NCBI GenBank assembly: GCA_008923315.1 | Contig: WBSF01000009.1 | Location: 372,001-436,000 of the forward strand | DNA: 64,000 nucleotides | Direction of reading: 5' to 3' | Source of the DNA: Betaproteobacteria bacterium SCN1 | GTDB lineage: Bacteria; Pseudomonadota; Gammaproteobacteria; Burkholderiales; Thiobacillaceae | Part shown: piece after piece, positions 22,357-41,742 of the stretch | How the letters are laid out: the number at the start of each line of letters is the position of its first letter | Numbering within the stretch: position 1 is the first letter of the stretch | Program-made: the position numbers and the translations under genes | Notes under the pieces: generated by a model | The model's database searches: none | What the model saw: only the letters and a program-made list of their open reading frames with translations | Told to the model about the DNA's origin: nothing

Positions 22357-22785
22357 TTACGGCTGGGCGGCGCGCTCGGGTTCGGTGACGAAGCCGAGTT
22401 TGGTGAGGCCGGCACGCGCGGCGTCGGCCATGATCTGCGCCACATTGCGGTAGGCGAGATCGCCATCCGCGCGGATGTGGATTTCGGGCTGCGGGGTCTG
22501 GTGGGCGGCGAGATCCATCTTCGCGCGCCAGGCGGTCGCGTCGACCGCTTCGGCGTTCCAGAACACCGAGCCGTCGGCCTTGATCGACAGGTTGATCGTC
22601 TCCGGCTTCACTTCGTTGGGGGCGCTCGACGCCACCGGCAGGTCGACCTTGACCGCATGCGTCATCAGGGGCGCCGTGATGATGAAGATGACAAGCAGCA
22701 CCAGCATCACGTCGATGAGCGGGATCATGTTGATTTCCGCGTTGTCGCCGTCGCTGGCTTCGTTGCCGAGTCCGCCGAAAGCCAT
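22357..22785 (-). CDS. exbD: ExbD/TolR biopolymer transport protein
   Basis: The protein has 142 residues with a single N-terminal membrane helix, IPLIDVMLVLLVIFIITAP. It includes the conserved Asp of IDVMLVLLVIF that carries protons, then a periplasmic domain. With ExbB it forms the proton-driven motor for TonB. The gene starts immediately after exbB with an AGGAAC site. The adjoining tonB gene identifies it as ExbD rather than TolR. Confidence 0.93.
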   Translation of the reverse strand: MAFGGLGNEASDGDNAEINMIPLIDVMLVLLVIFIITAPLMTHAVKVDLPVASSAPNEVKPETINLSIKADGSVFWNAEAVDATAWRAKMDLAAHQTPQPEIHIRADGDLAYRNVAQIMADAARAGLTKLGFVTEPERAAQP

Positions 22786-23547: not shown

Positions 23548-23550
23548 GGA

Positions 23551-24330
23551 TTAACTCCTGAGGGTGAACTCAATCGGCACGATGACCCAGGCGGCCACCG
23601 GTTTGCCGGCCTGGCGGGCCGGCTCGAATTTCCAGCTTGACTGAACGGTTTTGGCCGCGGCTTCGTCCAGGCGCGGATAACCGCTGCTTTTTGCGACTTC
23701 GAGCCGTGCGACGCTGCCGTCCGGATTGACGAGAATGTTGAGCCGCACGATGCCTTCTTCGCGCAGGCGCCGGGACAGGGCCGGGTAGAGCGGCTTCGGA
23801 TTGTTCAGATAGTCGGCCGGCCGCGGCGGTGTGGGCGGCGGTGGCGGGGGCGGCGGCGCCGGCTTGGGCGCTTCTGCCACGACCGGAGGCGCGGGCGGCG
23901 GCAGCACCTCGGGCACGGGCTCCGGTTTGGGCTCGGGTTTGGGGGCTTCGATTACGGGTGCTGGCGTCGGCACCGGACGCTCCGCCACCAGCACGGGGGG
24001 CGGAGGCAGGGGCTTGACCGGTTTGGGCGGCGGCGGCTTGGGTTTCGGTTCCGGCTTGGGTTCGGGCTGTGGCTCCGGCACTTCGGGCTGGATCAGGCTG
24101 ACCGTGAGCGGGTGTGGCAGCGTGACGGGCGCCGGCGCTTCGGGCTTGAGCAGCATCAGGGCCAGCACGAGCAGATGCAGGCCGGCCGCGACCGCCAGCG
24201 CGACCGGCGACAGGCGGGGCGCGTACGACAGCGCGGTCGCCCGCGGCGAAGCGGCCTGCGGACGAGCGGTCGAAGTTGGCGGTACGGTTTGCGAGGGCGT
24301 CATCCCGGGCGAAAATCCAGTTGCGTTCAT
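23551..24330 (-). CDS. tonB: TonB energy-transducing protein
   Basis: The protein has 259 residues. An N-terminal anchor helix lies at about residues 42-62 (LSPVALAVAAGLHLLVLALM), followed by a long Pro/Lys/Glu-rich periplasmic spacer to about residue 165, then a TonB C-terminal domain with YPALSRRLREEGIVRLNI, SSGYPRLDEAA and WKFEPARQAGKPVAAW. It carries proton-motive energy to the TonB receptors of this window. It is the first gene of the Fur-controlled operon tonB-exbB-exbD-feoA-feoB. The 40 residues before the anchor helix leave the exact start open; an internal ATG at 24303 is an alternative. Confidence 0.93.
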   Translation of the reverse strand: MNATGFSPGMTPSQTVPPTSTARPQAASPRATALSYAPRLSPVALAVAAGLHLLVLALMLLKPEAPAPVTLPHPLTVSLIQPEVPEPQPEPKPEPKPKPPPPKPVKPLPPPPVLVAERPVPTPAPVIEAPKPEPKPEPVPEVLPPPAPPVVAEAPKPAPPPPPPPPTPPRPADYLNNPKPLYPALSRRLREEGIVRLNILVNPDGSVARLEVAKSSGYPRLDEAAAKTVQSSWKFEPARQAGKPVAAWVIVPIEFTLRS

Positions 24331-28358: not shown

Positions 28359-28401
28359 CGGCCTGATAGACTCGCCAGCGGACCCCGACAAACGGATCGG
28401 T

Positions 28402-29103: not shown

Positions 29104-29121
29104 GGGACTTCGCGATATTCG

Positions 29122-29505
29122 TCAGGTGTTCCGGCAATGCTCGGCAATGCGCCATAGCACCCCACCGGGGTCGGTGAGCACGAAGTCGCGCATTTTCCAC
29201 GGACGCCGCGCGGGGGCTTCGAGCCGGCTGCCGTAGCGGTGTTCCAGATCGAGCGTGTTGACATGCGCCCACCAGTCGTCGAGCTTCGCCACCCGCAGAT
29301 GCATCATGCAGTTGTGCGCGTGCGCTTCCACGTAAAAATCCTGCAGCATGAAGGCGCAGCCGTCCATCTGGAAGCGTGCCAGCCTGCCATCGGCCCACAC
29401 CCGCTCGAAACCGAGTTCGAGATAGAACTGCTGCGTCCGCGCGAAATCGCGTGCCGGAAGAAAGGCCAGCATGTCCAGCGCGCCGCATGGAGGAGAGGCG
29501 GTCAT
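29122..29505 (-). CDS. VOC-family (glyoxalase/bleomycin-resistance-like) protein
   Basis: This 127-residue single-domain protein shows two beta-alpha-beta-beta-beta units: DMLAFLPARDFARTQQFYLELGF at the start and WKMRDFVLTDPGGVLWRIAEH at the end. Such proteins bind a divalent metal and act as dioxygenases, isomerases or drug-binding proteins. The start overlaps the stop of the heme-type TonB receptor, so it is translated in the same operon. A link to heme or its breakdown products is possible but only suggested by the position. Confidence 0.85.
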   Translation of the reverse strand: MTASPPCGALDMLAFLPARDFARTQQFYLELGFERVWADGRLARFQMDGCAFMLQDFYVEAHAHNCMMHLRVAKLDDWWAHVNTLDLEHRYGSRLEAPARRPWKMRDFVLTDPGGVLWRIAEHCRNT

Positions 29506-31742
29506 TTGAAGTCGTAGCTCAGGCTGAGTGAAACATTGCGACCGGGCTGGCTATAGCGGTCAGGACCGAAACTCGAATCAGGCACGTGGATGTCGGCCAC
29601 CGGCACATCTGCCCAGAGTGCGTACTTGACGTCGAATAAATTCATGACACCGATGGACAACCGGCCGGTTTGGGCGAAATGCCAGTGCGCACGCAGATCG
29701 AGCACGGCATAGCCTTCTGGAAGGAACTGGCGCCGCAGGCTGCCATCGGTCTCGCGACGGGCATCGTTCCTGGATTTTTCTCTGGCCATGGAAAGCGTCG
29801 ACTCGATCTTCCAGGGTCCGGTGGTGTAGATCAGGCCGAGCGTCGCGGTCAGAGGGTTGACGCTGTCGATGGGATTGTTGTCCGTGTCGCGTCCGCGTGC
29901 ATAGGCCAGGCTGCCGCGTGCCGACCATGCATGGGTGAATGCATGCCGGAAGCCTGCTTCCAGACCGTAGATGCGAACGCCGTCGAGATTGCGTGCCTGG
30001 TAGGTATCTTTCTCTGTGGTGCTGCACAAAGGGTCTGCTCCGGGCAGGAGAGGCCCCAGCGGATCGGTGCGCGTCGCCGGACCACGCGGGCAATAAACCG
30101 TTTCCTGCTCAATGAAGTTTGTGTAATGCGTGTCAAAAGCCGTGAAGTGCCATTGGCCTCGCGCATGTATGTGGCGCAGCGTGAGCTCCGGGCCATGTGA
30201 CGTTTCAGCTTCAAGATCGGGATTGGCGATCGCAACATAGGCGCCACTATTGGTGAACCCGATGTTCACATCGTCAAAAGGTGGCGCGCGGAACCCCCAG
30301 GCGTACTGGCCGATGAGCTCGAACCCCGGGCTGAAGCGCCAGATTGCCCCCAGCTTGGGCGAGAGGGCATCAGTCTGCAGCGGTTTCGCGTGAGCCGTTG
30401 GATTGGCGCTGAGATAAAGCGCATCCGGCTCCACCTTGAGGTCGTAGCGGTCATAGCGCAGGCCAAACTGCAGTGACCAGGCATCCGACAGCATCCAGGT
30501 GTCCTGTGCGAACAGCCCGATTTCGTTGATGGTCGAAGGCGGATAGTCGCGGGCGGGATACTTGATTCCGCCGACAGTTTTTTCGGTCTGGTTCCGTGTG
30601 GGGTAGTATTCCTGGCCGTCCCGCATCTGGACGGTTTCGCGCCGGCTGGCTTCCAGACCCCACTGTATGCGGTGCGCGCCTTCAGCTTCGAAGGCGGTGT
30701 CGAATGCGAGTCTCAGACCCGTGATGTCCTGTTCCTGTTCGAAGTTGCGGTCAACGAGAGAGGGCAGTGTAGGGGTGTTCTGCCGATACTCGTACGTATC
30801 CTGAGTCGTCCGATTGGTTTGCCGATACAGTTTGAAATCAAGTGTGCCCAAGGGCAGTTCGGCGATGCGCTGATCGAACGAAAGGCGTTGGCGACGGTAT
30901 CCGTCCTCCGTGTGAACATCTTTGATGGGGGTACGTACGTTGGACAAGTAATTGGTGTCGATGTCGCGCGAGAAATTCTCGAACGTGAGCGTGGTGCGCA
31001 GCCTGGCGTCAGGAGTGAACGCCAGCTTGACCAGACCGGACAGACCCGTGTCTTCCTGTGGATTGGCGACGGTTCGGTCCAGGCCGAGGGTATTGCGCGT
31101 TCCCTTGGTCTCCGTTTCCGTGCCATGGCGCCGCACGCCGCGCAGCAGCAACTTGAGTGTCTCGTTGCCGGCTGCCAGAGTCGGGACAAGGACGTTCGAA
31201 TCGTTGGCGCTGTGATATTGCACTTCGATACCGCCCCCGACGGGTCGTCCATTTTCCAGCCAGTCTTCGGGTTCGGGCGTGACGTAGCTGACCGCTCCGC
31301 CCAGTGCGCCCGATCCATACAGGGCCGAGGCACTGCCGCGCTGGATGTCCATGCGCTTCAGCAACGCGATGTCGACCAGATTCCGGCCCGAATTTGCATA
31401 GCCGCCGATACTGAAGGACTCAGGCAAGCGAACGCCGTCGATTTGCATCAGAACACGGTTGTCTTCGACACCGCGAATGTTGAAGCCGCCGAGGCCGAAA
31501 CGTGATGGGTTATTGGTGACTGAGATACCCGGCTCGTACCGGACGGCATCCTTGATACTGGTTGCCATGGATTCGCTGAGTTGCTTGGCGTCCAGCGTGG
31601 TGATCGTGGCGGTTTCGTCAGCCCCCTCGTCGGGAGCCTCGGCTTCCACCGAAACCGTGTCGAGCACGGTTTCGGCGGTAGCTGTCCGGCCGTGACAGCA
31701 GAGTGCCATGGCCAGCACAAACAGCAAGAGAGGGTGCGTCAT
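29502..31742 (-). CDS. TonB-dependent heme/hemoglobin-type receptor
   Basis: The protein has 746 residues with a signal peptide ending at ATAET. The plug contains ATSIKDAVRYEPGISV, FGLGGFNIRGVEDNRVLMQIDGVRLP and RGSASALYGSGALGGAVSY, the pattern of the hemoglobin/transferrin/lactoferrin receptor family. The barrel has a FRAPPFDDVNIGFTN segment near residue 484, close to the heme-receptor FRAP motif, and ends in LSYDFK. It overlaps a PEP-CTERM gene upstream and a VOC gene downstream. Specificity for heme is supported by the motif and the nearby heme operon; direct ligand data are lacking. Confidence 0.87.
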   Translation of the reverse strand: MTHPLLLFVLAMALCCHGRTATAETVLDTVSVEAEAPDEGADETATITTLDAKQLSESMATSIKDAVRYEPGISVTNNPSRFGLGGFNIRGVEDNRVLMQIDGVRLPESFSIGGYANSGRNLVDIALLKRMDIQRGSASALYGSGALGGAVSYVTPEPEDWLENGRPVGGGIEVQYHSANDSNVLVPTLAAGNETLKLLLRGVRRHGTETETKGTRNTLGLDRTVANPQEDTGLSGLVKLAFTPDARLRTTLTFENFSRDIDTNYLSNVRTPIKDVHTEDGYRRQRLSFDQRIAELPLGTLDFKLYRQTNRTTQDTYEYRQNTPTLPSLVDRNFEQEQDITGLRLAFDTAFEAEGAHRIQWGLEASRRETVQMRDGQEYYPTRNQTEKTVGGIKYPARDYPPSTINEIGLFAQDTWMLSDAWSLQFGLRYDRYDLKVEPDALYLSANPTAHAKPLQTDALSPKLGAIWRFSPGFELIGQYAWGFRAPPFDDVNIGFTNSGAYVAIANPDLEAETSHGPELTLRHIHARGQWHFTAFDTHYTNFIEQETVYCPRGPATRTDPLGPLLPGADPLCSTTEKDTYQARNLDGVRIYGLEAGFRHAFTHAWSARGSLAYARGRDTDNNPIDSVNPLTATLGLIYTTGPWKIESTLSMAREKSRNDARRETDGSLRRQFLPEGYAVLDLRAHWHFAQTGRLSIGVMNLFDVKYALWADVPVADIHVPDSSFGPDRYSQPGRNVSLSLSYDFK

Positions 31743-32443
31743 GCCGCCAGCTTGGCGGCCTTGTTACGACGACGCACCTGCCAGCCGACCAGACCGAGGC
31801 CGGCGGCGAGCATGGCGTAGGTTTCGGGCTCGGGCACCGGTGCGGCGGCAATATCGACCGCGACCTGGGCGAAGGAAGTGTGGACCGGCGCATCAATTGC
31901 GAAGTAATAATTGCTCGGGGCGCTCGCGAGATCCCAGTAGTAGACGTTCTGGAAAAGATCCACCTCGCCGATTGCGCCCGTCATGACCGTGCCGGTGAAA
32001 GTTGTCGAGGAAAAGGTTGGCGCCAGGTCATTCAGCAAAACTGAAGTCGGGTCCATGCCCCAAGCCTCGGTCTGCAAAACGACACGGACCGGACCGGTGG
32101 GCACTGTGCCAGTCATGTTGATGTCGAAATACTCGTCCACACTGAAGCTGTAGAGGTTGCCTGTGCTGGCCGGGAAGACACCGCTGTTCCAGGCAATGTT
32201 GGCATCGCTGGTGCCCGAGGCGCCGACGTCGGGAGCCGCGGTACGGTCGCCAGGCCACGTGATATCGACAAACGTGTCCCATTCGGCGTAGATCGTATTT
32301 GCGTCACCGCGATTCCAGCCTCCCCAGCTTGCCTCGGTGGGGGTTTCGAATCCGTAGGCATACGAGTCGGGACCATTCGTGGTGTCGGCGAAGACGGGCG
32401 AGGCGGCCAGCATGGCGGCCAGTGCTGCAAGTTTGATTTTCAT
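31739..32443 (-). CDS. PEP-CTERM protein coupled to the heme receptor gene
   Basis: The protein has 234 residues, with a signal peptide ending at VFADT and a Trp/Asn/Asp-rich beta-type mature domain with no named family. The C-terminal sorting signal is VPEPETYAMLAAGLGLVGWQV with RRRNK. The stop overlaps the start of the TonB receptor gene (ATGA), so surface protein and receptor are made together. A role as a hemophore-like or surface-presented ligand-binding partner is inference from that coupling. Start at 32443, preceded by AAGGGAAC. Confidence 0.78.
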   Translation of the reverse strand: MKIKLAALAAMLAASPVFADTTNGPDSYAYGFETPTEASWGGWNRGDANTIYAEWDTFVDITWPGDRTAAPDVGASGTSDANIAWNSGVFPASTGNLYSFSVDEYFDINMTGTVPTGPVRVVLQTEAWGMDPTSVLLNDLAPTFSSTTFTGTVMTGAIGEVDLFQNVYYWDLASAPSNYYFAIDAPVHTSFAQVAVDIAAAPVPEPETYAMLAAGLGLVGWQVRRRNKAAKLAA

Positions 32444-32503
32444 GAGTCAGTTCCCTTTGTAGTGAGTTGAACAGCCAACAGAGCGCCCTCGCGGGCGGAT
32501 CAC

Positions 32504-32529
32504 GCTGGCTGGTCGGGGGACTGGCTAGC
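32504..32529 (-). repeat. Two leader elements before the receptor-linked PEP-CTERM gene
   Basis: GCTGGCTGG (32504-32512) and ACTGGCTAGC (32520-32529) lie in the 115-bp gap upstream of the gene starting at 32443. No Fur box was seen in this gap, so it is probably an internal leader within a longer transcript. Confidence 0.55.
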
Positions 32530-32558
32530 AAAAACGGTAGAAGTATCGGGGGCCGTCT

Positions 32559-33497
32559 TCAGGCGGGTTTACGCCGCCGGCGTGCGGCGGCGATTACGGT
32601 CAATGCGCCCAGGCCGAACAGTGCGGCATGCTGCGGTTCGGGTACGGCGCTGACCTGCCAGCCAATGTCGGCGAATCCGGCGTAGTCGAGCACGGTGGGC
32701 AGTTCGCGCGTGCCGCTCCGGGTACTGGGGTCCATCAGCGTCTGCTGTGGAAGGCCGGCGTAGGTACTCATCGTGCCGCTGGCCCAGTGGGCGCCGTATT
32801 GATCGACGGGGACGGGGTCGCCGTAGGCGGCAACCGAATGGGCGCCGGTGAAATAGCCATCGTCATTTATCCGGGCGTACCACGCGTCGGCTTCGCCGAA
32901 ACCCAGGATGTGGCCGATCTCGTGGATGGCGGTGGTGAGGAAATCGGGATGCCCCGGCGTCAGGCCGGCGGGGTCGCTGCCGAAGTACCAGGCGTTGGCG
33001 GCATTGAACCAGATCGAACCGCCCCAGGTCCCGTAATCGGTGGCATTGACGCCCGTGGTGTTGGTCTGGCCGCGGGTGGTGACGGCGTCGACGAATTCGT
33101 CCGAACCGCTGGCGGTCAGGTTGCTGCCGAGACGGGCAAATCCGAGCACGCCGGGCGCCGACTCGGAGCCGCCGACATAGATGCGGAGGGTATCGGCGGC
33201 CAGCGTGAGATCGGTCAGCGTGACCGTCGGCCCCAGACTGGGGTGCGTGATCCGCACCGACCAGCTGTCGCCGGCCTGCGGGGCGATGGCCGACAGCGAA
33301 TCGGTGAAGCCGCTGTAGAACGAGGCGGCCTCTTCGAGCAGGCTGCGGCGTTCGACGATGGGCGCGCCGGTTTCCAGATCGGTGAAGAATCCCTTGGTGT
33401 CGTAGGTGTAATCGAACTCGATGACGAGCGCGTGTGCCGACGGCATGGCCAGCAGGCCGGCGGCGGACAGGGCGGCGATACTCGAACGCAGGGTCAT
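32559..33497 (-). CDS. PEP-CTERM zinc metalloprotease, matrixin-like
   Basis: The protein has 312 residues with a signal peptide ending at AHALV. The zinc site is AIHEIGHILGFGEAD near residue 191 (HExxHxxGxxxxD), and LMDPST further on could be the Met-turn. The fold suggests a matrixin-type or related metzincin. The C-terminus has VPEPQHAALFGLGAL then RRRRK. Exported and sorted by exosortase, it would act on the cell surface or matrix. It overlaps the preceding and lies in a four-gene run of PEP-CTERM genes. The substrate is unknown; release of bound heme iron from proteins is a hypothesis. Confidence 0.85.
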   Translation of the reverse strand: MTLRSSIAALSAAGLLAMPSAHALVIEFDYTYDTKGFFTDLETGAPIVERRSLLEEAASFYSGFTDSLSAIAPQAGDSWSVRITHPSLGPTVTLTDLTLAADTLRIYVGGSESAPGVLGFARLGSNLTASGSDEFVDAVTTRGQTNTTGVNATDYGTWGGSIWFNAANAWYFGSDPAGLTPGHPDFLTTAIHEIGHILGFGEADAWYARINDDGYFTGAHSVAAYGDPVPVDQYGAHWASGTMSTYAGLPQQTLMDPSTRSGTRELPTVLDYAGFADIGWQVSAVPEPQHAALFGLGALTVIAAARRRRKPA

Positions 33498-34027
33498 GCC
33501 GCACCCGCCTTGCGCCCGTGCCGCGCGAACCAGCCGGTGAGGCCGAGGCCGGCGAGCAGCATGGCCCAGGTTTCGGGTTCCGGCACGGGCGCGGCGGCGA
33601 GCACGCCGCCGTAGCTGCCGCCCAGCGTGCCGGTGACGTTGCCGCTGACCACGAAACGGTAGCCCGTCGCGGCGGGCAGCATGGCCGACAGGCTGAGCGT
33701 GTAGTCGTCGGGCGCGGTTGCGACGTCCTGCGCGATCAGCGTGTTCGACGCGTCGTAGAAGGCGATGGCGAAATCCGCGATCCGGAATTCCGTGCCGGGC
33801 GAGACCGGCAGGTCGAGTTCCAGGGTGACGGCCGTGCCGGCGACGGACGAAAACGACGCGAGATCGAACACGTAGACGTCGTTGAATGCGACGCCGGGCG
33901 CGAAGCTGCTGCCGATGGACACGGTCTGGCCCGAGAGATTGCCGAACGGCCCGGGACCGGTGGCGTGGGCGACGCAGCTTGCGCCGGCCAGGACGGCAGC
34001 GGCCAGCGGGCGGGACAAAGCGATCAT
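33494..34027 (-). CDS. FxDxF-type PEP-CTERM protein
   Basis: The protein has 177 residues. Start at 34027 is preceded by AAGGAG. The signal peptide ends at AHATG. FNDVYVFDLASF near residue 51 matches the FxDxF/Y motif of a common PEP-CTERM family, and a beta-rich domain follows. The C-terminal signal is VPEPETWAMLLAGLGL with a basic tail. It overlaps both neighbours by 4 bp. It probably forms part of the extracellular matrix or surface layer; the precise role is unknown. Confidence 0.8.
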   Translation of the reverse strand: MIALSRPLAAAVLAGASCVAHATGPGPFGNLSGQTVSIGSSFAPGVAFNDVYVFDLASFSSVAGTAVTLELDLPVSPGTEFRIADFAIAFYDASNTLIAQDVATAPDDYTLSLSAMLPAATGYRFVVSGNVTGTLGGSYGGVLAAAPVPEPETWAMLLAGLGLTGWFARHGRKAGAA

Positions 34028-34764
34028 GGGTTTCTCCTTGCGCGTTTCCATGCGACGAGCATCAGGCCGGCCAGCAATGAGGCCCAGGTGGCGGGTTCGG
34101 GTACGGCGGTCAACGGCGTGACGGAACCGATGCCGGCGCCGTATACGCCTTGCATGGCGGCGATGGTTTCGTCATCCAGCAGGTAGACGGGGCCGGTGTA
34201 GGCGGACAGCGCCAGATTGGCGGCCGCCGCCGGATCGGAGCTGACGTAATGCCCCATGCCGAGGCTGTGGCCGAGTTCGTGCTGCGCCACGCTGTAGAAG
34301 AACGCGGCCGTCCAGCCGAGTCCGAAGCGCTGGGCATTGAACACGATGTCGCCCGCCAGTCCGCTGGTTTCCGGGTTCTTGGGGAAATAGGCGTACGCGT
34401 TCGCATCGTCGATGTTCGCGACCTGGCCGATGCGGATGTCCGCCAGGCCGTAAGGATCGTACTGGCCGGTTTCCGGCAGGGGGCCGGCATCGATCACTTC
34501 GACGAAATGGATGGGCAGAAAGGCCGCGTAGTCGGCGAAAGCCTGTTCGAACGCGCCTTTCAGCGTATCGATCGAAAGCGGCACCCCCGCCCGGGTGGCG
34601 ATGCTGCCGTCCAGAAGATTGCTGTAACTGTAGGTGAGCGTGATCGGCGAACCTGCTCCGTCCGCCTGCGGCCAGCTCGCGTACATGGGGTAGTAGCCTC
34701 CCCATGCGCTGGCCGACAGCAGACAGGCGAGCACGAACCCCGCGCTGCGGATCGTGCGGCGCAT
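34024..34764 (-). CDS. PEP-CTERM zinc metalloprotease, matrixin family (M10-like)
   Basis: The protein has 246 residues with a signal peptide ending near ASAWG. The classic matrixin zinc motif AQHELGHSLGMGH (HExxHxxGxxH) is near residue 163, preceded by an ADIRIGQV segment and by a GDIVFN strand as in matrixins. The C-terminus is VPEPATWASLLAGLML with KRARR. With the second metalloprotease two genes away it gives this operon two exported zinc proteases. It follows the first PEP-CTERM gene by 6 bp. Confidence 0.87.
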   Translation of the reverse strand: MRRTIRSAGFVLACLLSASAWGGYYPMYASWPQADGAGSPITLTYSYSNLLDGSIATRAGVPLSIDTLKGAFEQAFADYAAFLPIHFVEVIDAGPLPETGQYDPYGLADIRIGQVANIDDANAYAYFPKNPETSGLAGDIVFNAQRFGLGWTAAFFYSVAQHELGHSLGMGHYVSSDPAAAANLALSAYTGPVYLLDDETIAAMQGVYGAGIGSVTPLTAVPEPATWASLLAGLMLVAWKRARRNP

Positions 34765-34770
34765 GGTGGA

Positions 34771-35514
34771 TCAGCCCAGATGCTTGCGGCGGCGAACCAT
34801 CCAGCCGGTCATGCCGAGACCGGCCAGCAGCATGGCGTAGGTTTCCGGTTCCGGCACGGCGGTCACGGTGAGGAAGGTGTAGCCCATCGCCGTGCCGCCG
34901 TTGTCGTTGTTGAGGAAACCGTGGAGAAACTGGTTGCCGGAGGTGTCGTTCTTGCCGGTGAGCGCGATGGCATGGATGGCGTTGCTGCCGTCGACCCAGC
35001 TGTTGACCAGCGCGGAAACGTCGAAGGTGACTGTGCCGTAGCCGTCGATCGACGTGTATGCGGCGGTGTCGGCGGCGAGGATGTTGTTGTTGTAGAAATT
35101 GAGCCAGCTGACCGTGCCGCCGGGATTGGTGTCGTCGGTGATGCTGGCGAGCGGGTCCAGGTCGACGCCGTGCGCGGATACGGTGAAAGGATTACCGGGG
35201 CCGGCATCGCCGCCGAAGCCGCCCTCGGCGCTTTGCATCGTCAGCGTGGCGACGACCGGGCCGGTGAAGGTCGAGAAATCGTAATCGAACGTGAGATAAA
35301 TCGTTTCTGCGCCGGTCATGCCGTTCGTGTTGTGGTTCGAAACGCGCATGACGGGCCGGTTGGCGTCTTCCGCATAGCCGCGAACCAGGTCGGTGCCGGT
35401 GAAGAACACGGAGGTCATCACGTCCTGGTCGACGGCAATATCGACGGCATGGGCGGACTGGGCGAGGCCGAGACTGGCGGCGAGCGCAACGAGTGTGTGC
35501 GAAACGGTTTTCAT
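34771..35514 (-). CDS. PEP-CTERM protein, first gene of the Fur-headed operon
   Basis: The protein has 247 residues. Start chosen at 35514, where a signal peptide ending at AHAVD begins. The mature part is beta-rich with TIYLTFDYDFSTFTGPVV and TVTFDVSALVNSWVDG, a pattern like DNRLRE/carbohydrate-module surface proteins; no family is certain. The C-terminus has VPEPETYAMLLAGLGMTGW with VRRRK. It is the first gene behind a promoter with a Fur box about 190 bp upstream and a leader with two perfect hairpins. Confidence 0.8.
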   Translation of the reverse strand: MKTVSHTLVALAASLGLAQSAHAVDIAVDQDVMTSVFFTGTDLVRGYAEDANRPVMRVSNHNTNGMTGAETIYLTFDYDFSTFTGPVVATLTMQSAEGGFGGDAGPGNPFTVSAHGVDLDPLASITDDTNPGGTVSWLNFYNNNILAADTAAYTSIDGYGTVTFDVSALVNSWVDGSNAIHAIALTGKNDTSGNQFLHGFLNNDNGGTAMGYTFLTVTAVPEPETYAMLLAGLGMTGWMVRRRKHLG

Positions 35515-35832
35515 CTTTATCCCCTTGTGGATTGAGCCGGACAATGCGCGGTGCGCGGGTTTGGACTGGCTCATCCCGGGGGACTGGCTGGCAGCGTGAA
35601 GCGGGCTTCAGGCTGTGCTGGCGCTTCGCTGGGCGAAGCCTGCTGGCCGACCGAGGTCGGCCCTGAGGTGGCGTGTGCGTGCCGTTTCAGGGCATGCGCA
35701 TGTTCTTATGAATGAGAACGATTGTCAATACTATTTTGGCGGTTGTTTTGCGTACATGTCCGGGTAGCTTCCCGGCGGGCGATCCCGGTGCGGCCGGCGG
35801 CGCAAGCCTGGCCGCCGCCGCAGCGGGCCGGT
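35515..35832 (-). other. Structured leader of the PEP-CTERM/heme receptor operon
   Basis: This 318-bp gap holds no gene. Going from the start at 35514 upstream on the minus strand it contains two leader elements (ACTGGCT at 35565, ACTGGCTGGC at 35583-35592), a perfect 7-bp hairpin (35623-35639), a perfect 8-bp hairpin GGCCGACC/GGTCGGCC (35645-35662), CCGTTTCAGGG (35682-35692), and the promoter with Fur box (35700-35729). GC-rich inverted repeats near 35790-35825 may terminate hugZ. The untranslated leader would be about 180 nt. Confidence 0.65.
35700..35729 (-). promoter_or_regulatory. Fur box and promoter before the PEP-CTERM operon
   Basis: On the minus strand TTGACA (35723-35728) and GAACAT (35700-35705) are 17 bp apart. 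The overlapping site at 35711-35729 matches AATGATAATCATTATCATT at 14 of 19 positions. Iron-bound Fur should repress the PEP-CTERM genes that start at 35514. Confidence 0.75.
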
Positions 35833-36393
35833 TCAGTGGTCTTCGTTCTGCAGGACGTCGGCTTTTTTCTGCGTTTCTGCGTTGCCGGCGCGGTGACCGA
35901 CATCGTTGAGGTGGCGCACGTTGTTCAATGCCTCGCCTTCGACAACGAAAGCGCGCGCGAAGCCGGAAACGTAAGTGGCCTTCTGCGGATGCAGCCGATA
36001 GAGGTGAAAGTCCTTCATGCCCTTCAGTACATCCATGGTGCCGCCGAATTTCTGTGAAAAGGCGTCGAGGATGCGGGCGAACTGCGCTTCGCCGCGCGGT
36101 ACGTGATGCGCCGTGCACTGGTAGGTGGTGCGGCGGCGTGCGAAGAGATTCTTGCTGTCGGCTTCGTTCTCGATGAAGAGCACGCTGACCTTGCCCTGCG
36201 CCCTGAGGTTCTGGGTATGGGCGGCAAGTTCGCTCACGTAGACGTAGAAATCGGCGCCTTCACGCACGTAGGCGGCGTAGCTGGCGTTGGGGTCGCCCTC
36301 GCCGTTGACGGTCGCCATCAGCAGGGACTGAAAGCGTTCGGGAAAGACTTCGTATTCGGCGCGGACGGTATCGAGATCGATGGTTGCGGACAT
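35833..36393 (-). CDS. hugZ: HugZ/HutZ-family heme utilisation protein
   Basis: The protein has 186 residues; the start at 36393 is preceded by a TGGAGAAAC ribosome site. It has the split-barrel flavin-reductase-like fold of HugZ/HutZ: YEVFPERFQSLLMATVNGEGDPNASYAAYV at the N-terminus, FYVYVSELAAHTQNL, then ATYVSGFARAFVV near residue 145. These enzymes bind heme and degrade it to release iron in the cytoplasm. It is the last gene of the heme operon. A tract of 11 C residues on its strand lies 22 bp upstream of the start. Confidence 0.88.
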   Translation of the reverse strand: MSATIDLDTVRAEYEVFPERFQSLLMATVNGEGDPNASYAAYVREGADFYVYVSELAAHTQNLRAQGKVSVLFIENEADSKNLFARRRTTYQCTAHHVPRGEAQFARILDAFSQKFGGTMDVLKGMKDFHLYRLHPQKATYVSGFARAFVVEGEALNNVRHLNDVGHRAGNAETQKKADVLQNEDH

Positions 36394-36414
36394 GAATGTT
36401 TCTCCAGGGTTTGA

Positions 36415-36425
36415 GGGGGGGGGGG
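36415..36425 (-). repeat. Homopolymer tract (11 G/C) before hugZ
   Basis: Eleven G residues on the plus strand (eleven C in the transcript) lie 22 bp upstream of the hugZ start, close to its ribosome binding site. Tracts of this length are prone to slippage. Confidence 0.75.
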
Positions 36426-36449
36426 CCAGTCGGGCGGCGGGATCGGCGG

Positions 36450-36482
36450 ACTGGCTAGCTGGGAACATCCAGGCTGGCTGGC
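36450..36482 (-). repeat. Two leader elements before hugZ
   Basis: ACTGGCTAGC (36450-36459) and GCTGGCTGGC (36473-36482) lie in the 163-bp gap between the small paralog gene and hugZ. CCGTTTCAGGG follows at 36505-36515, identical to the copy at 35682-35692. Confidence 0.55.
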
Positions 36483-36826: not shown

Positions 36827-37438
36827 TTAGAGACGTTGCGCGTAATATTCGACGACCTGCTGCACGTCGATGGGGAAGGGCACTTCGTCGGCCATGGGCA
36901 CGCGATTGATCTGCGCGGTGCGCTGCGTTTCATCGAAATGCAGCCACTCGGGCCGAGTGAGCGCCGGCGCCTGCAGGCTCTCGGCCACCATCGGGATGTT
37001 CGCGGCGCGGCCGTGCAGGGCCAGCGTGTCGCCGGGCTTGATGCGGATCGACGGAATGTTCACGCGCACGCCGTTGAGCAGGATGTGGCGATGGCGCACG
37101 AGCTGGCGCGCCGCGACCGCGGTGGGAGCGAAACCGGCACGGAACACGGCGTTGTCGAGCCGGCATTCCAGCAGTTCGAGCAGTTTGTCGCCGGTGGGCA
37201 TCCTCGCGCGTTTGGCTTCGACGAACAGGCGGCGGATCTGCGTTTCGTTGAGGCCGTAGTTGTAGCGCAGCTTCTGTTTTTCCATCAGCTTCACGCCGAA
37301 GTCCGACTTGCGCTTGGTCTTCTGCCCGTGCTGGCCGGGCGGATAGGGTCGATCTTCGATGGATTTCGTGGACAGGCCGGGCAACTGGGTGCCCAGGGCA
37401 CGCATGATCTTGAGGCGGGGGCCGGTATAGCGGGACAT
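36827..37438 (-). CDS. rpsD: Second (alternative) 30S ribosomal protein S4
   Basis: The protein has 203 residues. S4 features are intact: MSRYTGPRLKIMRALG, YPPGQHGQ near residue 32, EKQKLRYNYGLNETQIRRLF near 53, and an S4 RNA-binding domain with LLECRLDNAVFRAGFAPTAVAARQLVRH near 89. By memory the N-terminus resembles cyanobacterial and plastid S4 more than the usual betaproteobacterial S4 (with DSKCK). It lies inside the heme-uptake operon, not in the ribosomal alpha operon. It is presumably a conditionally expressed replacement of S4 or has an extraribosomal role; a canonical copy should exist elsewhere. Confidence 0.9.
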   Translation of the reverse strand: MSRYTGPRLKIMRALGTQLPGLSTKSIEDRPYPPGQHGQKTKRKSDFGVKLMEKQKLRYNYGLNETQIRRLFVEAKRARMPTGDKLLELLECRLDNAVFRAGFAPTAVAARQLVRHRHILLNGVRVNIPSIRIKPGDTLALHGRAANIPMVAESLQAPALTRPEWLHFDETQRTAQINRVPMADEVPFPIDVQQVVEYYAQRL

Positions 37439-37447
37439 GATGATTCC

Positions 37448-37499
37448 AGGGGTCAGGGGTCAGGGGTCAGGGGTCAGGGGTCAGGGGTCAGGGGTCAGG
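37448..37499. repeat. Heptanucleotide tandem repeat between hmuV and rpsD
   Basis: Seven perfect copies of AGGGGTC plus a partial eighth fill the space between the hmuV stop and the S4 start. The hmuV stop codon (37495-37497) lies within the last repeat unit. Unit length 7 is not a multiple of three. No ribosome binding site is formed by the repeat itself; the S4 site is a weak GGAA just after it. Confidence 0.93.
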
Positions 37500-38280
37500 C
37501 GGCGGCGCGGGTGTGGATCCAGAGTTCGCCGTCGGGACCGGTGTGGCAGTCGGCGGCGACACGGTAGGTCGCCATCAACTGTTCGGGGGTGAGCACGTCG
37601 ACGGGGGGGCCGGCCGCGGCGATGCGGCCCCGGTCGAGCAGCACGATGCGGTCCGCGTAGCGCGCGGCGAGATTCAGGTCGTGCAGGACGGCGATCACGG
37701 CAAAGCGGTGGGCGCGGCTGAGTCCGCGCGCCAGCCCCAGAAGGCCGTGCTGATGGGTGATGTCGAGCGCGGCAGTGGGTTCGTCGAGAAAAAGCAGGCG
37801 CGGATCGGTATCGCCCGGCCACACCTGGGCGAGCGCGCGCGCGAACTGCACGCGCGCCTTCTCGCCACCCGAGAGCCGCGGGTAGCTGCGTGCCGCCAGA
37901 TGCGCGGTGTCCGCCGCCGCCATCGCCTCGTCGACGATGTCCCAGTCGCGCGCGGTGGTATGGCGCTCGCAATGCGGATAGCGGCCCATCATCACCACTT
38001 CGCGCGCGCTGAAGGCGAATTCCAGATGTGTGTCCTGGCGCATCACGGCGCGGGTGCGGGCGAGCTCCAGCGGCTGCCAGTGGGCCAGTGGGCGGCCGCA
38101 TAACGCCACTTCGCCGGCTTCCGGCACGAATTCGCCGGCCATCACCTTGAGCAGCGTGGATTTGCCGGCACCGTTGGGGCCCAGGATGGCGAGCGTTTCG
38201 CCCGCGCGCGCAGACAGGCTGACGCCGTCGAGCAGATTGCGTCCGCCGCGCGTGACGCGGAGCTGGCTGGCGTAGATCAT
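37495..38280 (-). CDS. hmuV: Heme ABC transporter ATP-binding protein HmuV
   Basis: The protein has 261 residues. The Walker A is LGPNGAGKST near residue 34, the signature LSGGEKARVQFARAL near 140, Walker B LLFLDEPTAALD, and the H-loop VLHDLN. The order with HmuU and HmuT, and the upstream HmuS gene, identify a heme rather than siderophore or B12 importer. It energises heme transport through HmuU. The start overlaps the end of hmuU (ATGA). The stop lies inside a heptamer tandem repeat. Confidence 0.93.
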   Translation of the reverse strand: MIYASQLRVTRGGRNLLDGVSLSARAGETLAILGPNGAGKSTLLKVMAGEFVPEAGEVALCGRPLAHWQPLELARTRAVMRQDTHLEFAFSAREVVMMGRYPHCERHTTARDWDIVDEAMAAADTAHLAARSYPRLSGGEKARVQFARALAQVWPGDTDPRLLFLDEPTAALDITHQHGLLGLARGLSRAHRFAVIAVLHDLNLAARYADRIVLLDRGRIAAAGPPVDVLTPEQLMATYRVAADCHTGPDGELWIHTRAAA

Positions 38281-39353
38281 GCGCCCCGTCCCCGTTGTGC
38301 GAGCAGCCAGATGAAGAAGGGCGCGCCGAGCGCGGCGGTGAGTACGCCGAGCGGCAATTCGGCGGGCGCGATCAGGACGCGTGCGCCGAGATCGGCCAGC
38401 ACCACGATCAGCGCACCCATCAGCATCGATACCGGCAGCGTGCGGTGATGGTCGGGCCCCAGCAGCATGCGGACCAGATGCGGCACCACCAGGCCGATGA
38501 AGCCGATCATGCCGGTGAAGGCGACGAGCACGCCGACGGCGGCGGCCACGCCGACGAAGCTGCGCCGCTTCACCGCCTGCACGTCCACGCCCAGGTGCGC
38601 GGCTTCGGCTTCGCCGAGCAGCATGGCGTTGAGCGCGCGCGACTGGCGCAGAAACACGGCGGCGGCCAGGCCCACTACGACGAGGCAGACGGCGACGAGC
38701 GTCCAGTTGGCGGCGCCGAGCCCGCCGAGCGTGAAGAAGGTGAGATTGCGCAGTTGTTCGTCGTTGGCGAAATAGCTGAACGCGCCCAGGCCGGCGCCGG
38801 CCAGCGCGTTGATGGCAATGCCGGCGAGCAGCATCGAGGTGACGTCGGACACGCCGTCGCGGGTGCCGAGCCGGTAGACAAAGAGCGCGGCGGCCAGACC
38901 GCCGCCGAACGCGGCCAGCGGCAGCAGCCACAGGCGCAGGGCGGGGAAGATCAGCGGCAGGGCCCATCCGCCAGCGACGATGACGAGGCCCGCGCCGAGC
39001 GCGGCGCCGCCGGATACGCCGACCAGGCCGGGGTCGGCGAGCGGGTTGCGGAACAGGCCCTGCAGAACCGCGCCGCAGATGGCCAGTCCGGCGCCGACGA
39101 GGATGGCGAGGACCACGCGCGGCAGACGCAGGTGGAGGAACAGTGCGGCTTCGCCCGCTGTGTAGCGGTCGCCGACATCCAGTCCCAGTCCACCGGCGAG
39201 AATGGCGAGAATGCGGCCCGGCGGCAGTTCGACCGCGCCGATCCCGGCGGCGGCGAAGAACGACAGCACGAGCAGCGCGACCAGCGTGGACACGATCCAG
39301 ACTGCGCGCGGCGGACGCGGCATCCGCGGGGCCGGCTGCGCGAGCGTGCTCAT
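38277..39353 (-). CDS. hmuU: FecCD-family heme ABC permease HmuU
   Basis: The protein has 358 residues and about ten membrane helices. FecCD/BtuC hallmarks are visible: LPRVVLAILVGAGLAICGAVLQGLFRNPLADPGLVGVSGGAALGA near residue 80, and GFIGLVVPHLVRMLLGPDHH near 290. Start chosen at 39353 (MSTLAQPAP); a longer frame to 39440 would run through the structured gap upstream. It forms the inner-membrane channel for heme with HmuV and the binding protein HmuT. Confidence 0.92.
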   Translation of the reverse strand: MSTLAQPAPRMPRPPRAVWIVSTLVALLVLSFFAAAGIGAVELPPGRILAILAGGLGLDVGDRYTAGEAALFLHLRLPRVVLAILVGAGLAICGAVLQGLFRNPLADPGLVGVSGGAALGAGLVIVAGGWALPLIFPALRLWLLPLAAFGGGLAAALFVYRLGTRDGVSDVTSMLLAGIAINALAGAGLGAFSYFANDEQLRNLTFFTLGGLGAANWTLVAVCLVVVGLAAAVFLRQSRALNAMLLGEAEAAHLGVDVQAVKRRSFVGVAAAVGVLVAFTGMIGFIGLVVPHLVRMLLGPDHHRTLPVSMLMGALIVVLADLGARVLIAPAELPLGVLTAALGAPFFIWLLAQRGRGA

Positions 39354-39370
39354 GTCAGGCCGCGCGCGGG

Positions 39371-39508
39371 GCCGCACGCCAGGGGCACAGAGACGCGCGA
39401 GGACCGGACGACTCGCGATGAGGCTGGCTGGAGCGGCCACGACGAATCCCCGCGTCGTTCCTCAAAATCGTCCGGTAGTTCGGCATCCCTGTGCCGCTGG
39501 CGTGCGGC
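39371..39508. repeat. Nested inverted-repeat element between hmuT and hmuU
   Basis: Outer arms at 39371-39390 and 39489-39508 pair over 20 bp with one mismatch. An inner pair, ACCGGACGA (39403-39411) with TCGTCCGGT (39468-39476), is perfect, and a small hairpin (39439-39444 with 39453-39458) closes the centre. One leader element, GCTGGCTGG, is at 39423-39431. The whole looks like a structured RNA leader or a small non-autonomous palindromic element. Confidence 0.75.
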
Positions 39509-39515: not shown

Positions 39516-40361
39516 TCATGCCTGACCTCGCGTGCGTTGCGCGAGCCGGGCCACGGCCTGCGGCAGACGCGGCCCGAAACCGAGCAGAAACAGACCGTCG
39601 AATGTGCATACCCTGCGTGCCTTCGCGGCCGGCGTATCCGCCAGTCCGGGACGCGACAGCAGGGCGTCCGGCCCGCCCAGGCCGTCGACCGATTGCTGCG
39701 TGGTGACGACCACCTCGGGCGCGGCGGCAGAGAGCGCTTCGGCGGAAATGGTCTTGTAGCCCTCGAAATCGAGTGCGTTGTCGCAGGCGGCCAGCGCGAG
39801 CATGGCGTCGGCCGCGGTGCCGCGGCCAGCCAGATTCAGCACGGGCCCGCCGTGCGCCATGACGAACACCGCACGCGGCCGTCCCGGCAGACCGGCGATC
39901 TGTGTCGCGGTGCGTTGCCATTCCGTCTCGTACTGACGGATACGGACGGTGGCGCGCTCCGCCTGTCCGAGCGCGGCGCCGATCGCGCGCAGCTTGTCGG
40001 CCGGTGCGGCTGGCGTGTGCGCGGCGGGCAGCGTGATCCAGCGGATGCCCGCCCCCTTGATCTGGGTGACAACGGCGGGCGGGCCGGCATCGTCGGAGGC
40101 CAGGATCAGATCGGGCGCCAGCGAGAGCAGGCCCTCCGCCGACAGCGCGCGCTGATAGCCCACGCGGGGCAGGCGCTGCGCCACCGGAGGATAGAGGCTG
40201 GTGGTGTCCGCGCCGACGATGACTCGCTCCATGCCGAGTGCGTACACGCATTCGGTGATGGCGCCGCCGACGCATACGACGCGCGATTGCGCGGCCCGGA
40301 CCGGGCGTGCCGTTGCGGCGAACGCAGTGGCGCCCAGGGCGAGAAAGTCGCGCCGCTTCAT
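39516..40361 (-). CDS. hmuT: Periplasmic heme-binding protein HmuT
   Basis: The protein has 281 residues. The N-terminus MKRRDFLALGATAFAATA is a twin-arginine-like signal. The mature fold is a class III binding protein: VVCVGGAITECVYALGMERVIVGAD, the YPPVAQRLPRVGYQRALSAEGLLSLAPDLILAS segment with the conserved Tyr expected to coordinate heme, then QTxSVDGLGGPDALLSRPGL near residue 238. It delivers heme to HmuUV. Start and upstream ABM gene overlap (ATGA). Confidence 0.9.
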   Translation of the reverse strand: MKRRDFLALGATAFAATARPVRAAQSRVVCVGGAITECVYALGMERVIVGADTTSLYPPVAQRLPRVGYQRALSAEGLLSLAPDLILASDDAGPPAVVTQIKGAGIRWITLPAAHTPAAPADKLRAIGAALGQAERATVRIRQYETEWQRTATQIAGLPGRPRAVFVMAHGGPVLNLAGRGTAADAMLALAACDNALDFEGYKTISAEALSAAAPEVVVTTQQSVDGLGGPDALLSRPGLADTPAAKARRVCTFDGLFLLGFGPRLPQAVARLAQRTRGQA

Positions 40362-40681
40362 GCGGCGCGTTTCCCGACACGCGGGGCGAACGCCTCTTCG
40401 CCGATGTCGGTCTGGATCGGCGCCGCGAAGGCTTCGCGCTGCAGTCCCATGCCGTTCAGCATCCATACCCCGACCCAGGTGCGGGTGAAACGCTCGAAAC
40501 TGGCTTGACTGTCCCAGGCCAGCAGAAGGGTAAAGGCGTCGCGCCGTTCGCGCGGCAGGCTGAGCTCGCAGGACACGAGGCCGAGCGCCTGATGCAGGGA
40601 ATCGCGCGCGGCGTTCCATGCGTGCTGGAACTGGTCGCGGTAACGCGGCAGAACGTGAAAGTGGTAGGCGATGGCGAGCAT
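40358..40681 (-). CDS. ABM-domain monooxygenase-like protein, possible heme-degrading enzyme
   Basis: The protein has 107 residues with the ferredoxin-like ABM (antibiotic biosynthesis monooxygenase) pattern: AIAYHFHVLPRYRDQFQHAW at the start, LLLAWDSQASFERFTRTWVGVW in the middle. IsdG-type heme-degrading enzymes have this fold, and the gene lies between hmuS and hmuT with 4-bp overlaps, so a heme-linked role is likely. The specific IsdG catalytic triad could not be confirmed by eye, so the activity remains open. Confidence 0.72.
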   Translation of the reverse strand: MLAIAYHFHVLPRYRDQFQHAWNAARDSLHQALGLVSCELSLPRERRDAFTLLLAWDSQASFERFTRTWVGVWMLNGMGLQREAFAAPIQTDIGEEAFAPRVGKRAA

Positions 40682-41742
40682 CAGCGCGTCCCCATGCTTT
40701 CGGCCAGCATGCGCCAGCCGGTGGTTTCTGGAATGCCGGGTTTGCGTTTGCCGAAGAAATAGGCGATGAATTCGCCCTGCGCGTCGAACAGCTCGATGGA
40801 GGTGACGACGCCGTCGGTCGTGGGTTTTTTCACCAGCCAGACCTGGGCGACGAGATCCTCGCGCAGATGCAGATTGAAGCCGGGGTCGAGCACATTGATC
40901 CAGGGACCCATCCGTTCAATGCGCTTCACCGGCCCGGTGTGGATCTGGATGCAGCCGGAATTGCCGACGAAAACCATGATGTCGAGCGCCCCGGCGGCGG
41001 CGGCCTGCAGCACGCGTGCCGGCGTATTGGTGAACAGGGGCTTGGCGAAGGCCTCGCCGGCGAGCCGGAAGGCCTGGGTGCGGCTGACCTGATGTTTCCT
41101 CAGCAGGCCGAAGAACTGGTGGGTGTCGCGCATCGCATGCCAGTCGGCGCGCAGGGCTTCGACGTCGACCGCATCGTCGGACCGCTCGGGCTTGAGGCTT
41201 GCCGGGCGCGGCAGGACGGTTTCGCCGGGAATCTGTACCGGTGCGGCCCAGGCATCGCGCAAGGCCTCGAAAGCGAAGGGGTCGGCGTCGTCGCGCAGGT
41301 AGATCTTGTGGATGGCGTCGCCGCAGGCATCGAAGAACTGGAACGACCGGCGCGTCTCGCTGCCCACTTTTTCCTCGACAGCGTAGGCGAACGTCCATTT
41401 GTCGTAGAAGAGGCGAAGGTCGATGTCTTCGCCCAGCACCAGGCCGACCTGATCGCCGTGGCTGATGTTGGTGTAGTTGCCGTCCTTTTCGTGCACGGCG
41501 GCTTCGTTGCGGGTCAGCGCCATGACGTGACCCAGTTCGCCCATGCGCATCATCAGGTCGCGCAGGTCGCCGCCGAGCCGGACGACGTGGCCGCCCACGC
41601 CGGTGGCGAGCAGCTGCGCCTCGGACACGCCGAGTTTTTGGGCGGCTTCGCGAATCCGCAGGCGTCCCTGCGCGGTCAGCGCGTGCCAGGCCTCGCGCAG
41701 CGCCTGCGGCGAATTCGCGTCGACGCGGACCGGGGTGCTCAT
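40681..41742 (-). CDS. hmuS: HmuS/HemS-family cytoplasmic heme-handling protein
   Basis: The protein has 353 residues with the two-repeat HemS/ChuS architecture. Repeat 1 includes LGVSEAQLLATGVG and GELGHVMALTRNEAAVHEKDGNY; the His in VHEKDG is a known heme-contact region. Repeat 2 includes VFVGNSGCIQIHTGPVKRIERMGPWINVLDPGFNLHLRED with its own His. These proteins accept heme from HmuUV and store, transfer or degrade it. It touches the ABM gene and overlaps an upstream small gene. Confidence 0.93.
   Translation of the reverse strand: MSTPVRVDANSPQALREAWHALTAQGRLRIREAAQKLGVSEAQLLATGVGGHVVRLGGDLRDLMMRMGELGHVMALTRNEAAVHEKDGNYTNISHGDQVGLVLGEDIDLRLFYDKWTFAYAVEEKVGSETRRSFQFFDACGDAIHKIYLRDDADPFAFEALRDAWAAPVQIPGETVLPRPASLKPERSDDAVDVEALRADWHAMRDTHQFFGLLRKHQVSRTQAFRLAGEAFAKPLFTNTPARVLQAAAAGALDIMVFVGNSGCIQIHTGPVKRIERMGPWINVLDPGFNLHLREDLVAQVWLVKKPTTDGVVTSIELFDAQGEFIAYFFGKRKPGIPETTGWRMLAESMGTR

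What the first reader, a model, noticed from the sequence alone, without database searches (positions are those of the whole stretch)
29122..35729. Iron-repressed operon joining five PEP-CTERM proteins, two of them zinc proteases, to a heme-type TonB receptor
Seen: a promoter with a 14/19 Fur box (35700-35729), then PEP-CTERM genes at 34771, 34024 (HELGHSLGMGH protease), 33494 and 32559 (HEIGHILGFGEAD protease) with overlaps or a 6-bp gap, then a fifth PEP-CTERM gene that overlaps a heme/hemoglobin-type receptor by 4 bp, then a VOC gene. Known: PEP-CTERM proteins are sorted by exosortase and usually tied to matrix/EPS; Fur controls iron uptake. Inference: the cell deploys surface-sorted metalloproteases and binding proteins to free and capture heme or protein-bound iron. 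I know of no described exosortase-dependent iron acquisition operon.
Basis: partly seen in the sequence, partly recalled or inferred. Interest (0 to 1): 0.88.

Follow-up and report, generated by a model that had tools for sequence, protein, structure and literature searches.

The report
Surface protease module beside heme receptor
A sediment- or groundwater-type bacterium carries, next to an ordinary heme-import operon, a set of surface-sorted proteins (two likely proteases, a probable sugar-binding protein and others) that looks switched on by iron shortage and stays together with a heme-type receptor in distant relatives, which suggests a new way to harvest heme iron outside the cell.

Summary
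At 29122-35574 (minus strand) five genes with PEP-CTERM sorting tails, two carrying HExxH zinc motifs, run head-to-tail into a PhuR-type heme receptor and a VOC gene, 140-200 bp behind a Fur-like box. Protease PROT1 is rare: 7 distinct genomes in 1,433 genome-searches (with repeats). In 7 of 7 it lies near PROT2, a PEP5 homologue and a TonB receptor whose best family is heme, in three layouts. Fur-like boxes lie upstream in 6 of 7. Six relatives with only a distant receptor show no PEP-CTERM gene nearby. PEP1 is predicted to fold like polysaccharide-binding modules. Best explanation: an iron-regulated, exosortase-sorted accessory module of a heme uptake system whose matrix-held proteases free heme for the receptor. 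Linkage and predicted regulation are well supported; protease targets, heme handling and iron response are untested. The nearest precedent is ZepA, a Zur-regulated PEP-CTERM zinc-uptake protein; my literature searches found no iron or heme counterpart.

The parts
35711..35732 (-). Fur-like box: ATTGACAATCGTTCTCATT (14/18 palindrome, 35711-35729) and the overlapping 13/19 classical match (35714-35732)
   Evidence: 25-nt identical run in G025
34771..35514 (-). PEP1: PEP-CTERM protein; AlphaFold model matches chondroitin-sulfate- and alginate-binding modules; two invariant His (an upstream ATG at 35574 is possible)
34024..34764 (-). PROT1: PEP-CTERM matrixin-like protease, HELGHSLGMGH
33494..34051 (-). 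PEP3: FxDxF family PEP-CTERM protein (NF038126, 93 bits, cut-off 50); only tail-like matches in the G025 stretch and none in the G040 stretch
32559..33497 (-). PROT2: PEP-CTERM protease related to NF038122, HEIGHILGFG; third zinc ligand unassigned
31739..32443 (-). PEP5: PEP-CTERM protein, predicted jelly roll with six conserved Trp; overlaps the receptor gene by 4 nt
29502..31742 (-). HemR: PhuR-type TonB-dependent heme receptor with FRAP and NPDL boxes
29122..29505 (-). VOC/glyoxalase-family protein, last gene, overlaps HemR by 4 nt
35833..36420 (-). HutZ/HugZ-like heme-utilisation protein (148.9 bits to TIGR04110, below its cut-off of 225)
36827..37438 (-). ribosomal protein S4 inside the heme gene run
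37495..38280 (-). HmuV heme ABC transporter ATPase (NF010068, 322.1 bits, cut-off 261)
38277..39440 (-). BtuC/FecCD-type permease, called HmuU from its context (best model 246.1 bits, below its cut-off of 334)
39516..40361 (-). periplasmic binding protein (PF01497), called HmuT from its context; start inferred by eye from the MKRRDFLALG signal sequence
40358..40681 (-). ABM-domain protein
40681..41742 (-). HemS/ChuX-domain heme protein (PF05171, 276.3 bits)
42934..43152 (-). HemP hemin uptake protein, with a Fur-like site upstream (43188-43215)
22357..24330 (-). tonB-exbB-exbD, with a Fur-like site at 24434-24458

Best explanation
The block is an iron-regulated accessory module of a PhuR-type heme uptake system. 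When iron is short, Fur lets go and the operon is transcribed. The five PEP-CTERM proteins are exported and passed by exosortase to the cell surface and its polysaccharide matrix. PEP1, folded like an acidic-polysaccharide-binding module, holds the set in the matrix. PROT1 and PROT2 digest hemoproteins that reach the surface (for example cytochromes from dead neighbours) and free their heme, perhaps with PEP5, whose gene overlaps the receptor's by 4 nt, holding substrate or heme near the receptor. HemR takes the heme up with TonB-ExbBD, HmuTUV moves it inwards, and HemS/HutZ handle it. Shown here: gene layout, families, conserved linkage, Fur-like boxes, predicted folds. Inferred: iron response, sorting, proteolysis, matrix binding, heme transfer.
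Against: G040, which has the clearest hemS-hmuTUV continuity, shows no Fur-like box (none at 12/19 or more in 19.9 kb; 245-397 of 400 shuffles do as well). The receptors of G798 and G550 stay below the curated cut-offs of both heme models (best 257.9 and 288.6 vs 316.85), those of G879 and G913 were only compared with them by BLAST, and no hmu homologue was seen in those four stretches. The Methylophilus-family stretches (20 kb) lack PEP1. PEP5 has no His, Met or Cys in 80% or more of 55 rows (best His column 56%), although Y28, Y52 and Y98 are conserved and Tyr can hold heme. The Met that matrixins have after the zinc motif (recalled) could not be placed in PROT1; PROT2 has Glu or Ser where the third His is expected. 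No His lies between FRAP and NPDL in the window, and the boxes read NTNL in G025 and FRPP/NPAL in G040. The tails could serve matrix building alone.
Confidence: 0.5

Rival explanations
1. Matrix remodelling under iron control. The PEP-CTERM proteins build or reshape the exopolysaccharide matrix (attachment, flocs, release) when iron is short; they share Fur control with the heme receptor but take no part in heme release or transfer.
For: PEP1's fold matches polysaccharide-binding modules; PEP5 has six conserved Trp and a jelly roll whose weak matches include carbohydrate-binding modules; PEP-CTERM proteins are described as matrix-associated in passages of PMC11072679, PMC8233155 and PMC7726332.
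Against: Would not explain why PROT1 was found beside a heme-type receptor in 7 of 7 genomes, nor the PEP5-receptor pairing kept in a separate unit in three Methylophilus-family genomes.
Confidence: 0.25
2. Capture system for a ligand other than hemoprotein heme: the receptor imports another iron or metal complex, and PEP5 or PEP1 is a secreted metal-binding protein in the manner of ZepA, with the proteases releasing the metal from it at the surface.
For: ZepA is a PEP-CTERM exoprotein that mediates zinc uptake, with TonB receptors and other PEP-CTERM genes in its context (PMC10957091); the G798 and G550 receptors are below heme-model cut-offs; PEP1 has two His (H115, H198) invariant in 48 rows that could bind metal.
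Against: The window's HemR is closest to PhuR by far; hemS, hmuTUV, a HutZ-like gene and hemP stand next to the module and hemS-hmuTUV directly precede it in G040.
Confidence: 0.15
3. Coincidental neighbours: PEP-CTERM genes are numerous here and the block merely sits upstream of the receptor.
For: 26 PF07589 matches in the genome, six of them inside this window.
Against: Linkage in 7 of 7 genomes, three arrangements and at least two orders; 33 shared contig lengths; overlapping genes.
Confidence: 0.04

Closest known systems
PhuR-PhuSTUV / HmuRSTUV heme uptake (operon names recalled)
   Same: Receptor family (PhuR 8the best), HemS-domain protein, hmuTUV-type transporter, HemP, Fur-like boxes; ordinary receptor-hemS-hmuTUV runs in G039, G048 and G056.
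   Different: Those three stretches have no PEP-CTERM gene; here two proteases and three other PEP-CTERM proteins precede the receptor.
ZepA zinc acquisition (Anabaena and others; PMC10957091, outline, passages and sections 11, 13, 18 seen)
   Same: Exported PEP-CTERM protein tied to metal uptake, controlled by a FUR-family regulator, with TonB receptors and other PEP-CTERM genes nearby.
   Different: Zinc and Zur, a single metal-binding protein; no protease or heme receptor in what I read ('heme' occurs 0 times in the text).
Porphyromonas gingipains with HmuY/HmuR (recalled, not tested)
   Same: Surface proteases free heme from hemoproteins for a TonB heme receptor.
   Different: Cysteine proteases sorted by type IX secretion and a heme-binding lipoprotein; here matrixin-like metalloproteases with exosortase tails.
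Floc protein PepA and other PEP-CTERM matrix proteins
   Same: Sorting tail and presumed surface or matrix destination.
   Different: Best score of the five proteins to the PepA model is 31.5 against a cut-off of 80; this set sits in an iron/heme context.
Alginate-binding and chondroitin-sulfate-binding modules (CBM96-like; family number recalled)
   Different: PEP1 is a single small sorted protein without an enzyme domain; binding untested.

Membership tests
TonB-dependent heme/hemoglobin receptor (TIGR01785/01786, PhuR type) | Whole-protein score above curated cut-off | tested here: met
   Window HemR 404.7/323.75 and 344.5/316.85. Receptors of G798 and G550, the two others scanned, are below both.
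TonB-dependent heme/hemoglobin receptor (TIGR01785/01786, PhuR type) | FRAP and NPNL/NPDL boxes (recalled) | tested here: met
   FRAP at 484-487 and NPDL at 507-510 in the window protein; no His between them; G025 and G040 vary.
TonB-dependent heme/hemoglobin receptor (TIGR01785/01786, PhuR type) | Binds and imports heme | not testable with these tools
   Needs an experiment.
PEP-CTERM/exosortase substrates | C-terminal PEP motif, hydrophobic stretch, basic end | tested here: met
   TIGR02595 over cut-off in 5 of 5; PF07589 over cut-off in 3 of 5.
PEP-CTERM/exosortase substrates | Exosortase in the genome | tested here: met
   PF09721: two places in G000 and at least one in each of the 7 genomes.
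Matrixin (M10) metalloprotease, for PROT1 | HExxHxxGxxH zinc motif and Pfam score over cut-off | tested here: met
   H162, H166, H172 in 18 of 18 rows; PF00413 30.5 vs 24.
Matrixin (M10) metalloprotease, for PROT1 | Conserved Met-turn Met after the motif (recalled) | tested here: inconclusive
   No Met in 80% or more of rows after M170; one column (200) has Met in 72% of rows but Thr in the window protein. Called matrixin-like.
NF038122 metalloprotease, for PROT2 | Score over curated cut-off 80 | tested here: not met
   51.7 bits, best stretch 139-202; a relative, not filed as a member.
HutZ (TIGR04110) for the gene at 35833-36420 | Score over curated cut-off 225 | tested here: not met
   148.9 bits; called HutZ-like.
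ZepA | >=35% identity over >=75% of ZepA with signal peptide and PEP-CTERM | not tested
   No ZepA sequence was fetched.
Fur-regulated operon | Fur-like box upstream | tested here: met
   Present in 6 of 7 genomes, absent in G040.
Fur-regulated operon | Fur binding and iron response | not testable with these tools
   Needs an experiment.
Hemophore (HasA, HmuY type), for PEP5 | Structural match to a known hemophore | tested here: inconclusive

The most novel reading that the evidence does not exclude
An exosortase-dependent, matrix-bound heme harvesting machine: polysaccharide-tethered metalloproteases that digest extracellular hemoproteins, such as cytochromes of lysed neighbours or extracellular multiheme cytochromes in sediments and groundwater, and feed heme to a dedicated PhuR-type receptor. 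Its patchy spread (Thiobacillus, another Burkholderiales family, Methylophilus relatives, a Gammaproteobacterium of another order) suggests a cassette that moves between lineages, though no tree was made; it would be the iron counterpart of the ZepA zinc system.
Probability: 0.35. Interest if true: 0.85.

Novelty: new variant of a known kind. Interest (0 to 1): 0.72.

Why it matters
What PEP-CTERM proteins do is still largely open. A conserved, Fur-marked set found each time beside a heme-type receptor gives a direct, testable function to several of them, joins the exosortase system to iron nutrition, and, beside ZepA, suggests that metal capture in the matrix may be a general job of this sorting system in biofilm and sediment bacteria. 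It also names a possible route by which heme is recycled in microbial mats.

Tried and rejected
Coincidence was rejected on the conserved linkage. PEP5 as a hemophore is neither supported nor excluded: no hemophore among the PDB rows shown, no His, Met or Cys conserved in 80% of rows, but conserved Tyr. An RNA regulator in 28300-43500: none at gathering threshold. A consensus sigma-70 promoter at 29000-36900: none found by the simple scan. A minus-strand terminator-like site in the 32444-32558 gap: none listed; the scan's 8 sites are near its shuffle mean of 6.0. Plasmid records: one match only, a 599-aa Kovacikia protein with a 39% matrixin-like region and no related neighbour in 18.6 kb. The genome-contig scan used two short patterns and gave 3 loci, so it is no census; likewise only the best few candidates of many genomes were scored (as few as 6), so absences are soft. 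Rows dropped before the count of seven: 20 of 60 genomes (own included) had a match at E<=0.001, but only G000, G025 and G040 matched along the length; the rest were PEP-tail or partial matches, for example G050 residues 107-180, G010 142-203 and G031 64-217 (29%). The contig-length comparison rests on equal longest-contig lengths, not on contig names. The tail profile was built from 237 tails of PROT1, PEP1 and PEP5 relatives, so its success on the 7 module loci is partly circular. The third ligand of PROT2 was left open (D204 and H237 are both invariant in 7 rows); the two structure jobs went to PEP5 and PEP1.
Full report
What is there. On the minus strand, 35574 down to 29122, seven genes follow one another with overlaps or short gaps: PEP1, PROT1, PEP3, PROT2, PEP5, a TonB receptor (HemR) and a VOC protein. 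The first five have PEP-CTERM tails by TIGR02595. The only wider gap is 115 bp (32444-32558); G025 and G040 keep gaps of 109 and 115 bp there (coordinates), and no minus-strand terminator-like site was listed in it.

The surroundings. HmuU and HmuT are names by context; their best models are of the BtuC/FecCD and Peripla_BP_2 kinds. A Fur-like site lies upstream of hemP and another upstream of tonB-exbB-exbD at 22357-24330, 4.8 kb below the VOC gene. The block is the end of a heme-utilisation region of about 14 kb, with its own Fur-like box.

The receptor. The profile of three HemR orthologues matches PhuR (8the_A) at 421.7 bits over positions 6-734 of 735; the next solved sequences, transferrin receptors, reach 117.8 over the first 210 positions. 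HemR passes both heme-receptor models.

Relatives. PROT1 was used as the marker: 60 genomes, then an 18-row profile in 399 genomes of the order, 369 of the class, 150 of the family of G798, 53 of the order of G550, 4 of the family of G040 and 398 of the phylum; 1,433 genome-searches, with repeats. Seven distinct genomes carry it: G000 (window), G025, G040, G550, G798, G879, G913. By equal contig lengths G025 and G040 are Thiobacillus sp. DeMMO2_16 and Burkholderiales bacterium bin.9; G798 is the genome of L055, Methylophilus sp. 42. The window's genome shares its genus with G025, so it is most likely a Thiobacillus (inference).

Linkage. All seven keep PROT1, PROT2, a PEP5 homologue and a TonB receptor together. 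The receptors of G000, G798 and G550 were scanned and have heme families as best match, only G000's above the cut-offs; those of G025 and G040 are 58% and 48% identical to G000's, those of G879 and G913 about 60% and 59% to G798's. Layouts: PEP1-PROT1-(PEP3)-PROT2-PEP5-HemR on one strand (G000, G025, G040; in G040 behind hemS-hmuTUV); PROT1-PROT2 facing a unit of small gene-PEP5-receptor (G798, G879, G913; no PEP1 in the 20-kb stretches); and PEP1-PROT2-PROT1-extra-PEP5 divergent from the receptor (G550, a different order). In G550 PEP5's tail is of the VPLPA kind (29.0 vs cut-off 25.35, TIGR03370). PEP1 is thus present in 4 of 7 stretches. In the 5.8-billion-protein set PROT1 had 324, PEP5 149 and PEP1 240 relatives at the thresholds used, names including Methylomonas, Methyloversatilis and Nitrosovibrio; between the 120 listed for each, longest-contig lengths coincide 33 times for PROT1 and PEP1, 8 for PROT1 and PEP5, 14 for PEP1 and PEP5, against 1.5, 0.9 and 1.0 after jittering the lengths by up to 3%.

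Contrast. In one search, 9 of 60 genomes had a receptor match at E<=1e-60: G000, G025, G040 and six without PROT1 (G057, G001, G014, G039, G048, G056; 32-38% identity). The 18-kb stretches of those six hold no PEP-CTERM tail by a profile of 237 tails (0 of 6), while that profile, partly circular there, finds them in 7 of 7 module loci. Three of the six (G039, G048, G056) show a plain receptor-hemS-hmuTUV run, G001 has hemS and a piece of hmuT some 4 kb away, and G057 and G014 show the receptor alone. The PEP-CTERM set thus looks like an addition to a heme system, not a general neighbour of such receptors; six is a small control.

Regulation. Best 18-position palindrome scores upstream: window 14, G025 14, Methylophilus-family PROT1 units 15 and PEP5 units 17, G550 receptor 16; 0 or 1 of 400 shuffles reached these. 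G550's PEP1 unit has 15 (1 of 400), but its other two scores are ordinary (21 and 45 of 400). G040 has nothing: 390-397 of 400 shuffles do as well before hemS, 245-320 before PEP1. Window and G025 share a 25-nt identical run over the box.

Function. The most economical account is a heme-harvesting accessory: matrix-bound proteases next to a heme receptor, expressed together when iron is short. What the proteases cut, whether PEP1 or PEP5 holds heme or touches the receptor, and whether PEP1 binds the strain's own matrix are open. The main rival keeps the same regulation but gives the PEP-CTERM proteins a purely structural job in the matrix.

Known and new. The searches PEP-CTERM + heme + Fur + exosortase, + iron limitation, + TonB-dependent receptor + iron, exosortase + hemoglobin, PEP-CTERM + iron starvation, + heme uptake, + matrixin (no paper), exosortase + iron acquisition and PEP-CTERM + metalloprotease + TonB (no paper) listed 18 distinct papers. 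I saw passages of 9 of them (PMC11072679, PMC11800396, PMC8233155, PMC2907700, PMC10599522, PMC7726332, PMC8788690, PMC12530212, PMC4960237) and only the listing of the other 9; none of what I saw describes such a system. The library holds open-licence papers only. The search for all3515 and Zur found the ZepA paper, of which I saw the outline, passages and sections 11, 13 and 18: a PEP-CTERM exoprotein for zinc with TonB receptors and other PEP-CTERM genes in its context. So the principle of an exosortase-tailed protein in metal uptake is known; the heme receptor, the proteases and the Fur setting are the new part.

Noticed in passing
window 24518-28358: A ZnuD-like receptor (265.6 bits, cut-off 950) is divergent from two PEP-CTERM genes (26762-27472 and 27462-28358). 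Between them lie three copies of a TGCAACnnnGTTGCAT-like palindrome, unlike a Fur box. It may be the zinc counterpart (ZepA-like) of the heme module.
   Followed up: partly
window 36827-37438: A ribosomal protein S4 gene lies inside the heme gene run, followed by a small ORF; both are kept in G025 (90% and 77% identity).
   Followed up: partly
L055:14996-15184 and L040 about 8674-8898: A small protein (RGQKEVI...YRF/YV) with no NCBIfam match sits between the Fur-like box and PEP5 in three Methylophilus-family loci and between hmuV and PEP1 in G040 (59% identical); no match in the window.
   Followed up: partly
window 42594-42836 and 36557-36808: Two small ORFs that look alike by eye lie in the heme gene run; no convincing family match found.
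   Followed up: partly
L058:8671-9252: An extra protein in the G550 module with a VPVPAS-type end that neither NCBIfam nor the tail profile recognises; possibly a variant sorting tail.
   Followed up: no
L040:14762-18464: A second TonB receptor and a PepSY-type membrane protein (by eye) follow HemR in G040, so that module sits in a longer iron-uptake run.
   Followed up: no
P0301 and P0322 (Nitrosovibrio sp. Nv17): Two PEP1 relatives are listed on a contig of the same length (185552), suggesting a duplicated PEP1 there.
   Followed up: no
paper PMC12530212 (passage): In a marine methanol-fed denitrifier, four c-di-GMP riboswitches lie next to genes with PEP-CTERM or VPLPA-CTERM domains and one next to a TonB-dependent receptor: another regulatory tie of such genes, unrelated to iron as described.
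   Followed up: no
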